From: an archaeon
Lineage (GTDB): Archaea > Hydrothermarchaeota > Hydrothermarchaeia > JALTZZ01 > JALUTC01
Direction: 5' to 3'
Assembly (NCBI GenBank): GCA_027051265.1
Contig: JALTZH010000194.1
Span: 1 to 10,741, forward strand
Length of the DNA stretch: 10,741 nt
Below the pieces are notes generated by a model, which saw nothing but the letters and a program-made list of their open reading frames with translations, searched no databases and had not been told where the DNA came from. Of this stretch, positions 7,561 through 10,741 are shown piece after piece (the first letter of the stretch is position 1; each line of letters opens with the position of its first letter). The position numbers and the translations under genes are program-made.

Positions 7561-8283
7561 TTGGATCAAGTATTTCTTATAAACGATGAAATTCTAAGGA
7601 GAGAGGTTTTATATGCCGATATATCCGAGAAAGATATCGTATTAGAAATTGGGGCTGGTGTTGGAAATCTTACGAGATTTATTGCAGAGAGAGCAAAAAA
7701 GGTTATAGCTGTTGAAAAAGATAGATATCTCGTTAAAATTTTAAGAGATGTTCTAAAAGAATTCGATAACGTTGAAATAGTAGAAGGTGATATCCTCAAA
7801 ATTAAGGTTCCGAAATTTAACAAGGTCGTTTCCAATATACCCTTCTCAATATCTTCGGAAATTACCGAATATTTAATGCTTAATGGATTTGAACTTGCTG
7901 TTATCCTGTATCAAAAAGAATTTGCTGAGAGATTGGTTGCAAAGCCATGTAGTAAAAACTATTCAAGAATAACTATACTGGTTAATCTTTTCTCCAAGGT
8001 TGAACTACTTGAAATCGTATCGAAAAAGAATTTCTTTCCAATCCCAGAAATTGATTCAGCAATAGTTAGGTTCGAATATAAGAGACGAGATTATGATTTT
8101 GATGTAAATGATTTTCTCTCATTTATTAGAGATATATTTATTCATAAGAAAAAGAAGTTGAGAAAAGTGTTGAAAAACTACGGTTATAATTTGGAAAAGA
8201 TTTCTGAGGATTTCCTAAACAAGAGGATATGTTGTTTATCTCTCGAAGATTTAATTACCATATATCGTTCTTTTAAAAAGTGA
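7561..8283 (+). CDS. ksgA: 16S rRNA dimethyladenosine transferase KsgA/Dim1
   Basis: This is the in-frame body of KsgA, the SAM-dependent enzyme that dimethylates two adjacent adenines in the 3' hairpin of 16S rRNA during 30S maturation. With the TTG at 7561 as start, it has 240 residues: DQVFL at the N-terminus, motif I VLEIGAGVG at 27-35, E52 for the ribose of SAM, a GD pair at 76-77, and the catalytic NIPF at 92-95 (the N-I/L-P-F/Y motif of adenine N6-dimethyltransferases). The C-terminal helical domain follows. The true N-terminus probably lies upstream at 7493, one base out of frame. The stop codon TGA falls inside the right end of a tnpB element; before insertion it was probably TAA. 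Both sides of the insertion leave the protein sequence unchanged. Confidence 0.9.
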   Translation: MDQVFLINDEILRREVLYADISEKDIVLEIGAGVGNLTRFIAERAKKVIAVEKDRYLVKILRDVLKEFDNVEIVEGDILKIKVPKFNKVVSNIPFSISSEITEYLMLNGFELAVILYQKEFAERLVAKPCSKNYSRITILVNLFSKVELLEIVSKKNFFPIPEIDSAIVRFEYKRRDYDFDVNDFLSFIRDIFIHKKKKLRKVLKNYGYNLEKISEDFLNKRICCLSLEDLITIYRSFKK

Positions 8284-8440
8284 CCTCCTCCCCGTGTTAA
8301 GTGGCGAGGATTCTTTGCGGGGAGGTTTGTGCTTCTGCGGGAGAAACTCGCAGAAGCACGGGGTGGGCCAGCACCCGGTTAAACCCTCCTCTCTCGAACC
8401 CTCTAAGCCTACATCGTCGCCGGTTCGGCTTAGAGGGCAT
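8280..8440 (-). ncRNA. Probable TnpB omega-RNA (reRNA) scaffold
   Basis: The right end of the element holds a series of GC-rich hairpins in otherwise AT-rich DNA: an 11-bp stem 8399-8409/8427-8437, a 5-bp stem 8361-8365/8372-8376, an 11-bp stem 8329-8339/8349-8359, and an 8-bp stem 8287-8294/8318-8325. Characterised TnpB proteins bind an RNA from exactly this place, overlapping the 3' end of tnpB and running over the right end so that flanking DNA supplies the guide. Here the guide would start at 8279 and run into ksgA (antisense TTTTTAAAAGAACG). The 5' limit is uncertain. The overlap also means the last 45 or so residues of TnpB are constrained by RNA structure. Confidence 0.65.
8287..8309 (-). 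repeat. Right-end hairpin of the tnpB element
   Basis: On the minus strand CCTCGCC pairs with GGGGAGG around a 9-nt loop, with one G-G mismatch. It resembles the left-end hairpin in its arms (CCTC ... ACTT ... CGGGGA) and lies 3 nt from the TCAC at the proposed cut. It competes with the longer omega-RNA stem 8287-8294/8318-8325 for the same bases. Confidence 0.6.
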
Positions 8441-9610
8441 CATTGAGACGAGGGCTATATTTAGAGCACCAACGACATCTCTATGAGCTTCTATACCGCA
8501 AGCGAGGCATTTAAACAATCTACCTTTTTTAACGAACTTGGCTGATCCACACCAAGGGCAACGAGAGGAGGTATTATGTTCATCGACAGGTTTAACTTTA
8601 ATACCGAAGTTTTCGGCAGTTATTTTAATTCTTTGGATGATATATCTATAGCTGAAGAAGTTGTGGATGATAGCGTTAACTTTTTTACCTTTGTTGTTGT
8701 TTATTCTTAGACCTTTAGGATCGCCGACAAAGATAGTTTTAACGCCTTTTTTCAAGCAAAGCTTAACGAATCTATGCACGACAGTATTAACGTAATGTCT
8801 AAACCTTTTTTGTCTTATTCTGTAGAGTTTTCTAAGGGTTTTGGAGGTATGTTTGTTATTAACTCTTTTAAGAATGCTTTGATATTGAGCGATTTTTTTG
8901 TTCCAATACCACCAATCGGATAGAAGAGGTTTGCCGCTGAAAGCAATGGCTTGTCTTTCGTTTTCGATCCAAGCGGTTATTAAGCAGATAGCACCGATGT
9001 CGACGAAGGCTTTTTTATAACCTTTTGCTTCAGGCTTCTCGACTTCGATGGTTTGATGAGAGTACCAACTTTTGGTTAAGTCATCATATAGGATTTCCAA
9101 TTGTCCTTGTTTACCATGCCATTTAGCTTTGCCTGTTATTCTTATTCTCATGCCTTTAAATATCAAGTATTTTTTGCCTTTGGAGTTCCTTTCTATACGG
9201 TAGCGGTCGTTTCTTATTATTGTCATAAGTTTTCTTTTCCCAGCTTCTCTATCTTTCCAGTAGCGAGGTGGGGATACGTTCTTAATGTGTTTAGGCAGTT
9301 TATTCATCCTCTGAAGCCATTTGAGCTTGAAGAAGCTTTTCCAAGCGAAGTTGTTCTTTCTTATTATTTGCTGTGCAGTAGCTGAGCCTAAAATTGATTT
9401 GAACTCGTTATACAATTCGTCAACTCCTTCCTCCCAATCAAATCTCCCTTCGAAAAATGCCTGCCTCCTTATATAGTTTAGCTTATTCCAAAGAATCGTG
9501 GACATCTTGCAGATTTTGAGAAGAAATTTTTCCTGTTCCTTTGTTGGATAAAGCTTAAATACGTTGGTTCTTTTCATCGTTTTAAGCATTCGCTTCTCCG
9601 CTTTTTGCAT
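8297..9610 (-). CDS. tnpB: TnpB, RNA-guided nuclease of IS605 group (OrfB)
   Basis: This 437-residue protein is an IS605-group TnpB, the RNA-guided DNA nuclease family related to Cas12. The N-terminal helix-turn-helix/wedge part begins FKLYPTKEQEKFL (18-30). RuvC motif I is VDIGA with D204. RuvC motif II is FVGDPKGL, where D297 follows a glycine in place of the usual glutamate. VDEHNTS (342-348) leads into the zinc ribbon C351-x2-C354 and C368-x2-C371, and RuvC III is HRDVVGALNIA with D378. The tail after about 390 is Arg-rich and is encoded by the omega-RNA hairpin region. The ATG at 9610 has a TATA box at -24.5; ATGs at 9589 and 9577 are alternatives. It appears intact. Confidence 0.93.
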   Translation of the reverse strand: MQKAEKRMLKTMKRTNVFKLYPTKEQEKFLLKICKMSTILWNKLNYIRRQAFFEGRFDWEEGVDELYNEFKSILGSATAQQIIRKNNFAWKSFFKLKWLQRMNKLPKHIKNVSPPRYWKDREAGKRKLMTIIRNDRYRIERNSKGKKYLIFKGMRIRITGKAKWHGKQGQLEILYDDLTKSWYSHQTIEVEKPEAKGYKKAFVDIGAICLITAWIENERQAIAFSGKPLLSDWWYWNKKIAQYQSILKRVNNKHTSKTLRKLYRIRQKRFRHYVNTVVHRFVKLCLKKGVKTIFVGDPKGLRINNNKGKKVNAIIHNFFSYRYIIQRIKITAENFGIKVKPVDEHNTSSRCPWCGSAKFVKKGRLFKCLACGIEAHRDVVGALNIALVSMMPSKPNRRRCRLRGFERGGFNRVLAHPVLLRVSPAEAQTSPQRILAT

Positions 9611-9630
9611 ATTAATTATTTATAATTCAT

Positions 9631-9640
9631 TATATAAATG
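9631..9640 (-). promoter_or_regulatory. TATA box of tnpB
   Basis: The minus strand reads CATTTATATA, with TTTATATA centred 24.5 nt before the A of the tnpB ATG, the spacing expected of a leaderless archaeal transcript. It lies inside the element, so tnpB carries its own promoter. Confidence 0.65.
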
Positions 9641-9664
9641 TTTCGCTTGCCATTGCACCTTCAT

Positions 9665-9684
9665 CCCCGCTTTGAAAAGTGAGG
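9665..9684 (-). repeat. Left-end hairpin of the tnpB element
   Basis: On the minus strand CCTC-A-CTT pairs with AAG-C-GGGG (one T-G wobble and an A-C mismatch) around the 4-nt loop TTCA. The hairpin starts 18 nt inside the TTAC flank, a geometry like that of IS608 left ends, and shares the CCTC ... ACTT ... CGGGGA pattern with the right-end hairpin. Confidence 0.6.
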
Positions 9685-9702
9685 CTTTCTTAGCGACATT
9701 TT

Positions 9703-9706
9703 GTAA
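9703..9706 (-). other. Inferred TTAC insertion target / TAM
   Basis: Minus-strand TTAC directly precedes the proposed left end. In IS608-type elements TTAC is the target tetranucleotide, stays outside the element, and serves as the target-adjacent motif for TnpB. Its plus-strand form GTAA, joined to the ksgA end at 8279, gives AAG TAA, the presumed original ksgA stop. Confidence 0.6.
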
Positions 9707-9740
9707 CATTTGTGTGTTTAGACATTAAAATTTCATTTAC

Positions 9741-9768: not shown

Positions 9769-10741
9769 ATGATTGAAGAAGTAAGGAAATGGATTGAAGA
9801 GGTTGAGAAGGAATTTAGGGAAGGAAGGCATCATAGAATAGTTTTTGAAAAGGAATTGAAACATCATGAGAGAGGATTTCATATAAAATCAGCGGGATTT
9901 GCCGTTGGGTTATTGAAAGGAAACCATTGCATAAACGACTTCGAAAAATTCAAATTCGTCGCATATAGAAAAATAGATCACCTTCTTGAAGTAAAAAGGG
10001 ATGGTAAGGCTGATGTAATCGATTGTAAAGAAAAAGAAATGCAATGTAAAATGATTATGGAAGAAATCGATGCAAAAGTTATGCAGCTCGCAAATAAAAC
10101 AACCGGAGACGTTCTAAAAGGAGATTACGAAAGATATTTCCTATTCGAAAATTACGACGGAAAGGATTTCAAAGAACTAATGATGCAAGATAAAATCAAA
10201 TCCGAACAATTCGGACAGGTTGAAGATGAAACGGAAATACTTGGACAAGGGGCAAACCTTAAAAGAATGGAATATAACATGAAAGCCACCGAAACGTTAA
10301 ACAATACAGCACTTGAAGTCCTTGAAGGATTTCTTGAACCTTGTATTCCAAAGACGGATATTTCTAATGCGAAGAAAATCGATGATATCAAGGACGAGGA
10401 AGACAGGAAAAGATTGGCAAGATGTTACGAAATATGGAAGGCTGCAAGTGCTTTAGAACCAATTATAAAGGATAAAGAAACGGATGAAAGATTTCAATAC
10501 GAATTCCTTGAGAAGTTTAAGATATTACAAAAAGCAATGAAAGGAAAGAAAACGGAATTATCAAGTCTCGGCCAAATAGATTACGATAAAGTTTCATACG
10601 TTGTTCATGAAAAACCATATACGTATAAGATGAGATTCATACATGACGTTCCAAGAGGAGTTTTAAAAACATGTCCATTACCAAATGCGGAAGCAGCGAA
10701 GGATGAAATGCTTTTCAGATTTGGTGACCATTATTTAATGC
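9769..10741 (+). CDS. Unrecognised charged soluble protein, 3' end outside window
   Basis: An open frame of at least 324 codons starts at the ATG at 9769 and runs past the window edge without a stop. No family is recognised. The protein has no signal peptide or membrane segment, is rich in Lys and Glu, and appears mostly helical with a coiled-coil-like start (EEVRKWIEEVEKEF). The first 95 residues hold a cluster of His and Cys: H21, H22, H32, H33, H38, H53, C54, H71, C86, C93, which could bind metal. The last visible part (270-324) is richer in aromatic residues and looks like a separate beta-containing domain. By hand count, 10 of 18 Phe codons are TTC against 1 of 8 in eif2a, which may hint at different origin or expression. 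A TATA box at -24.5 supports the start. Confidence 0.8.
   Translation, partial: MIEEVRKWIEEVEKEFREGRHHRIVFEKELKHHERGFHIKSAGFAVGLLKGNHCINDFEKFKFVAYRKIDHLLEVKRDGKADVIDCKEKEMQCKMIMEEIDAKVMQLANKTTGDVLKGDYERYFLFENYDGKDFKELMMQDKIKSEQFGQVEDETEILGQGANLKRMEYNMKATETLNNTALEVLEGFLEPCIPKTDISNAKKIDDIKDEEDRKRLARCYEIWKAASALEPIIKDKETDERFQYEFLEKFKILQKAMKGKKTELSSLGQIDYDKVSYVVHEKPYTYKMRFIHDVPRGVLKTCPLPNAEAAKDEMLFRFGDHYLM

What the first reader, a model, noticed from the sequence alone, without database searches (positions are those of the whole stretch)
8270..9716. tnpB element inserted exactly at the ksgA stop codon, exchanging TAA for TGA
With the element taken as 8280-9702, the flanks rejoin to read TTT-AAA-AAG-TAA, so ksgA would have ended in TAA with the same final residues (SFKK). 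After insertion, the right-end tetranucleotide TCAC, read on the plus strand as GTGA, supplies the last base of the Lys codon and a new TGA stop. The insertion is thus silent at protein level even though it hits a conserved rRNA-modification gene. TTAC on the target strand is the reverse complement of GTAA, so any gene ending in a xxG-TAA codon pair and any element ending in TCAC would have this property. That suggests stop codons as tolerated landing sites for this group.
Basis: partly seen in the sequence, partly recalled or inferred. Interest (0 to 1): 0.72.

Follow-up and report, generated by a model that had tools for sequence, protein, structure and literature searches.

The report
Transposon insertion that swaps stop codons
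A small archaeal transposon has landed exactly on the stop codon of an rRNA-methylase gene and supplies a replacement stop, leaving the protein intact; relatives of the element in another archaeon have done the same at about one in eight insertion sites, so this is a recurring, built-in way of inserting into genes without breaking them.

Summary
A tnpB-only IS200/IS605-type element lies at 8280-9702 (minus strand), preceded by its target TTAC (9703-9706) and ending in TCAC. Joining 8279 to 9703 gives ...AAG-TAA and the same 240-residue KsgA. Other copies share these ends: TTAC at the left, TCA plus one base at the right.

No relative with an empty ksgA site was found. The same event is proven elsewhere in the class. 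In genome G005 a 432-bp relative sits in CTG|TAA. Sister species G003 carries the uninterrupted site, and the filled gene reads CTC-TGA.

One correction: the stop comes from the conserved TCA (reverse complement TGA). The fourth base is usually G, so insertion normally alters the third base of the last codon. TCAC, which makes the ksgA case silent, is a minority variant and fails to match the element's predicted guide tetranucleotide. It may be a later mutation.

Generality: 12 of 95 right ends in G003/G005, and one more in the window's own genome, supply a gene's stop. TTAC sites on stops are 0.7-0.8% of all TTAC sites and 3-4% of those not interrupting genes. Tolerance of harmless sites explains most or all of this; active targeting is not shown.

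The parts
7561..8283 (+). ksgA (rRNA adenine dimethylase), 240 aa; its TGA stop at 8281-8283 lies inside the element
   Evidence: ORF; Pfam RrnaAD E=2.6e-50; C-terminus aligned with relatives
8280..9702 (-). IS200/IS605-type (IS1341-like, tnpB-only) element, 1423 bp
   Evidence: ends shared with other copies in the genome; end rule shown by empty/filled pairs of related elements
9703..9706 (-). TTAC target tetranucleotide kept at the left end (GTAA on +; inferred former last G of the Lys codon plus the TAA stop of ksgA)
   Evidence: sequence; TTAC at the left end in most copies; IS608 precedent PMC5934647
8280..8283 (-). right-end cleavage tetranucleotide TCAC; rc GTGA supplies the third base of the Lys codon and the new TGA stop
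   Evidence: consensus of other copies is TCAG, sometimes TCAA
8297..9610 (-). tnpB, 437 aa, intact; OrfB_IS605 and Cas12f1-like TNB domains; canonical RuvC-II Glu aligns with Gly (VGDPKG)
9685..9688 (-). putative left guide tetranucleotide AAAG (same as IS608 G_L), directly 5' of the left hairpin
   Evidence: sequence; IS608 G_L = AAAG in PMC5934647; conserved AAGAAAGCC in copies
9665..9684 (-). left-end hairpin CCTCACTTTTCAAAGCGGGG; mismatched here, perfect in the C52 copy
   Evidence: DNA folding, z -0.57 here vs -3.07 for the C52 copy
8310..8313 (-). putative right guide tetranucleotide GAAT (same as IS608 G_R), 5' of the terminal hairpin
   Evidence: sequence; other copies GAAC or GAAT; IS608 G_R = GAAT
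8287..8309 (-). terminal right-end hairpin region; an overlapping alternative pairing with the upstream CCTCCCCG is predicted here
   Evidence: z -3.0 for 8280-8330
8264..8279 (-). predicted 16-nt guide of the TnpB reRNA, antisense to the last ksgA codons
   Evidence: inference from ISDra2 reRNA anatomy (PMC8612924)

Best explanation
[quoted passage not shown] That TTAC was the complement of the G-TAA formed by the last Lys codon and the stop. Because the element ends in TCA plus one base, whose complement is one base plus TGA, the gene is closed at the same residue by a new stop: TAA is exchanged for TGA and no residue is added or lost. This follows from the two cleavage tetranucleotides (TTAC and TCAN), so it happens whenever such an element lands antisense on any xxG-TAA. 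Such insertions persist because they are harmless. Shown: the ends, the sequence relations, the event itself at another gene, and its recurrence. Inferred: that ksgA had TAA before, that TnpA acted in trans, and that the C in TCAC is a later change (G to C) or a minority right end. If TnpB is active, its guide would match the last bases of ksgA next to the TTAC, so it would cut any empty ksgA allele and help retain the element (inference from ISDra2).
For: Junctions and joined reading frame. Same ends in other copies of the genome. Empty/filled pair in the sister species: G003 GGGATTTAGCCT|GTAATTTCTGG versus G005 GGGATTTAGCCT|CTGACATATTCCCA...GATATC|GTAATTTCTGG, element 432 bp, CTG-TAA to CTC-TGA. 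Right junction of another pair: TTTAC|CATGTG empty versus GTATGTCAG|CAAGTG filled. Twelve of 95 right ends in G003/G005 supply the stop of an antisense ORF, the ones scanned being known families (RNase Z-like, MoeA, flavoprotein/UbiX-like, Fe-ADH-like, flippase); in seven of the eight genes compared with G003 the stop is at the same position, three being exactly G-TAA. Second case in the own genome, a glycosyltransferase ending ACC-TGA at G000:C57. IS608 uses TTAC, TCAA, AAAG and GAAT (PMC5934647); the window has TTAC, TCAC, AAAG and GAAT.
Against: No empty ksgA allele of the same species; the congener's ksgA is too diverged to show the junction. The window's last base C differs from the G or A of other copies, so a small post-insertion change at this very junction cannot be excluded. 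No TnpA in the own genome, so mobilisation in trans is assumed. TnpB lacks the canonical RuvC-II Glu, so its nuclease activity is uncertain.
Confidence: 0.88

Rival explanations
1. The element ends one base earlier (8281, TCA), the C at 8280 is host DNA, and the original ksgA ran 14 residues further (254 aa); the insertion truncated it.
For: The window's fourth base differs from the G or A of other copies; IS608 prefers C after TTAC (PMC5934647).
Against: Empty/filled pairs show that the fourth base belongs to the element; the 254-aa ending has no counterpart in relatives, the nearest being 239 and 243 aa.
Confidence: 0.07
2. These elements actively prefer stop codons or gene ends, for example because the antisense strand near gene 3' ends is exposed as single-stranded DNA.
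For: 12 of 95 versus 2-4 expected among TTAC sites that do not interrupt genes (P 7e-4 to 6e-6); TGA frame 12 versus 5 and 4 for the other frames (P=0.02).
Against: Relative to TTAC sites 1-100 bases downstream of genes the excess is 2-fold and not significant (P=0.20); the null ignores promoters and RNA genes, which would lower the number of truly harmless sites.
Confidence: 0.12
3. The C of TCAC is the original right end of this copy's lineage rather than a later mutation, so the insertion was silent from the start.
For: Two other stop-swapping copies in G005 also end in TCAC; TCAC is over-represented among stop swaps, 3 of 14 versus 3 of 98 (P=0.025).
Against: The 95%-identical copy C173 ends in TCAG; TCAC mismatches the predicted guide GAAT at position 4, which would hinder cleavage; numbers are tiny.
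Confidence: 0.35

Closest known systems
IS608 (IS605 group, Helicobacter pylori)
   Same: Target TTAC kept at the left end, right end TCA+N, guide tetranucleotides AAAG and GAAT beside subterminal hairpins (PMC5934647)
   Different: IS608 carries tnpA; its right end is TCAA; this element has tnpB only and ends TCAC (siblings TCAG). Stop exchange is not mentioned in the passages read
ISDra2 / TnpB-reRNA system (Deinococcus radiodurans)
   Same: Same single-strand transposition logic; TnpB gene and right end would give a guide from the flanking DNA (PMC8612924)
   Different: Target TTGAT; canonical RuvC catalytic residues; the relative here has Gly at the RuvC-II position
IS1341-type tnpB-only elements and non-autonomous (MITE/PATE-like) derivatives
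   Same: tnpB without tnpA; many short copies with the same ends in this genome and in G005
   Different: None of substance; group name is from general knowledge
IStrons (group I intron plus IS)
   Same: Insertions made harmless to the host gene (PMC4227781, abstract seen)
   Different: IStrons are spliced from RNA; here the element substitutes a stop codon at DNA level

Membership tests
IS200/IS605 family | Insertion 3' of a fixed short target retained at the left end, no target duplication | tested here: met
   TTAC at the left end of the window copy and most others; no duplication in the G003/G005 empty/filled pairs
IS200/IS605 family | Subterminal hairpins with adjacent guide tetranucleotides matching the cleavage sites | tested here: inconclusive
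   AAAG and GAAT/GAAC are in the expected places; hairpins fold in copies C52 and C138 but the window's left hairpin is degraded; pairing itself not tested
IS200/IS605 family | Y1 (HUH) transposase TnpA | tested here: not met
   No Y1_Tnp in the element or the own genome; present in G002 (1) and G005 (13). Absence is usual for tnpB-only IS1341-type members, which are thought to be mobilised in trans (general knowledge), so the element is filed as IS1341-type, not as a complete IS605-type element
IS200/IS605 family | TnpB protein with OrfB_IS605 and TNB/zinc-ribbon domains | tested here: met
   Pfam hits E ~1e-19
TnpB RNA-guided nucleases | RuvC triad D-E-D | tested here: not met
   RuvC-II Glu of UnCas12f1 aligns with Gly in VGDPKG; D motifs of RuvC-I and RuvC-III present. 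Rearranged RuvC-II clades exist and one member is active (PMC10278001)
TnpB RNA-guided nucleases | reRNA from the right end plus flanking guide | not testable with these tools
   No RNA data; no Rfam match in the window

The most novel reading that the evidence does not exclude
The cleavage-site pair TTAC/TCAN of this transposon group works as a safe-landing device: the target's complement contains TAA and the right end's complement contains TGA, so host genes are closed again automatically. The group exploits stop codons as a major niche (about 1 in 8 insertions in G005), while the TnpB guide then points at the 3' end of the host gene and penalises loss of the element.
Probability: 0.2. Interest if true: 0.72.

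Novelty: new member of a known kind. Interest (0 to 1): 0.52.

Why it matters
It gives a simple sequence rule for why some insertions of a very common transposon group do no damage to the gene they hit: TTAC-targeting, TCAN-ending elements replace TAA by TGA. The rule can be tested across all annotated IS605-type insertions, explains element-supplied stop codons that annotation would read as native, and links TnpB guides to the 3' ends of host genes. I found no description of it in the papers searched, which cover only open-licence articles.

Tried and rejected
A shared right flank of three copies (AAGTTAAG..) was looked for without an element and found only at those copies. A TnpB scan of genome contigs gave only two relatives. 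A search for a known guide-RNA family in Rfam gave nothing. The similarity CTTTTTA after TCAA in G002 and after TCA in the window was judged chance. Claim of enrichment over TTAC sites near gene 3' ends: not significant. The 70-codon open frame at C50:6969 has no start codon in it and was not counted.

Full report
What is there. The window is a contig of a 1.46-Mb, 257-contig archaeal genome, 95% complete. ksgA (7561-8283, Pfam RrnaAD E=2.6e-50) runs into a 1423-bp element on the opposite strand that carries an intact 437-aa tnpB. On the + strand the left junction reads TTT AAA AA|G TGA and the right junction TTTT|GTAAC. Deleting 8280-9702 gives TTT AAA AAG TAA.

Are the ends right? Copies elsewhere in the genome were read. 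At the left end, TTAC directly precedes AAA(A)YRTCGCTAAGAAAG in most copies. At the right end GGAGGTCA is the common close. The next base is G in 14 of 17 good right ends, A in two and C only in the window. In three G002 copies it is A; in 95 G003/G005 right ends it is G in 86. This base therefore belongs to the element, which agrees with IS608: target TTAC retained at the left, right cleavage site TCAA, guides AAAG and GAAT (PMC5934647). The window has AAAG (9685-9688) and GAAT (8310-8313) in the corresponding places.

Direct proof came from two congeneric genomes of the same class. Near cutA, G005 reads TTTAC|CATGTG where G003 has ...GTATGTCAG|CAAGTG; the left side of that pair is complicated by a second repeat and a 26-bp difference. 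A cleaner case is a CaCA-antiporter-like gene: G003 GGGATTTAGCCT|GTAATTTCTGG, G005 GGGATTTAGCCT|CTGACATATTCCCA...432 bp...GATATC|GTAATTTCTGG, both flanks aligned end to end. There a stop codon was hit and CTG-TAA became CTC-TGA. This is the event proposed for ksgA.

Why the stop survives. The complement of TTAC is GTAA and the complement of TCAN is N'TGA. An insertion antisense on xxG-TAA therefore always yields xxN'-TGA. Conversely, any gene read in that frame into a right end must have had TAA in the empty allele, so these cases cannot be truncations if the target was TTAC. The last residue changes or not depending on N': Lys AAG stays Lys only if the element ends in C (AAG) or T (AAA). In the window it is C, a minority variant; its nearest copy (C173, 95% identical) has G. 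TCAC also mismatches GAAT at position 4 by the pairing pattern of IS608 (TTAC/AAAG, TCAA/GAAT). I therefore think a later G-to-C change somewhat more likely than an original TCAC, but three of 14 stop-swapping copies end in TCAC against three of 98 others (P=0.025), which is unexplained.

How often. Of 95 distinct right ends in G003/G005, 12 close an antisense ORF of 98 to 415 codons at the TGA; those scanned against Pfam match known families. Of eight compared with their G003 orthologues, seven have the stop at the same place, three of them exactly G-TAA. In the own genome a second case is a glycosyltransferase fragment at C57. TTAC sites coinciding with xxG-TAA stops are 0.7% of all TTAC sites in 355 kb of the own genome and 0.7-0.8% in the G003/G005 flanks, or 2.6-4.2% of sites that do not interrupt an ORF. 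Against the latter the 12 of 95 is a 3-5 fold excess (P 7e-4 to 6e-6). Against TTAC sites within 100 bases downstream of genes the excess is two-fold and not significant. Harmlessness plus the natural frequency of GTAA at gene ends is thus enough; active targeting is possible but not shown.

How it moves and stays. No Y1 transposase is found in the own genome, though G002 has one and G005 thirteen, so the element depends on a TnpA in trans or lost. Its left hairpin is degraded, so this copy may be immobile. TnpB carries Gly at the position of the RuvC-II Glu, shared by relatives in G002; such rearranged clades exist and one tested member cuts DNA (PMC10278001). If it is active, the reRNA guide would be the antisense of the last ksgA bases and TTAC its flanking motif, as in ISDra2 (PMC8612924). 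That part is inference.

Limits. The empty ksgA allele was not found. The case for it rests on the end rule, on identical protein length after joining (240 aa; one base off gives 254 aa against 239 and 243 in the closest relatives) and on the proven parallel event. The literature search covers open-licence papers only. ORF-based nulls ignore promoters and RNA genes.

Noticed in passing
G005, e.g. L142, L161, L186, L196 (right ends listed): Minimal elements of about 50 bp with a single hairpin: TTAC|GATATCGTGAGCGGGAAAGCCCACGAACTTTAGTCGTGGGAGTATGTCAG, apparently a fused left and right end; many copies.
   Followed up: partly
window 8297-9610: TnpB has VGDPKG where the RuvC-II Glu is expected; conserved in G002 relatives.
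   Followed up: partly
G000 C50:13373, C119:3053, C48:14104: Three copies share a further right flank (AAGTTAAGRCTTATAAGAATGAAA...), seen nowhere else in the genome; a longer element variant or a shared target repeat.
   Followed up: partly
G005 C159:2163 and C176:2148 (L229, L231): Two right ends of the form AGAACGTCAC, both closing antisense ORFs; why TCAC is over-represented at stops is unexplained.
   Followed up: no
G000 C232:6811-8559 (L068): A degraded copy of the element interrupted by an unrelated repeat-like insertion.
   Followed up: no
window 9769-10740: 324-aa open frame downstream of the element, running off the contig, with no Pfam match.
   Followed up: partly
L022 (G001): In the congener ksgA overlaps the start of a putative isopentenyl phosphate kinase gene by ATGA; the neighbourhood differs from the window.
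   Followed up: no
window 7561: ksgA has no ATG in the expected place; the best start is TTG at 7561.
   Followed up: no
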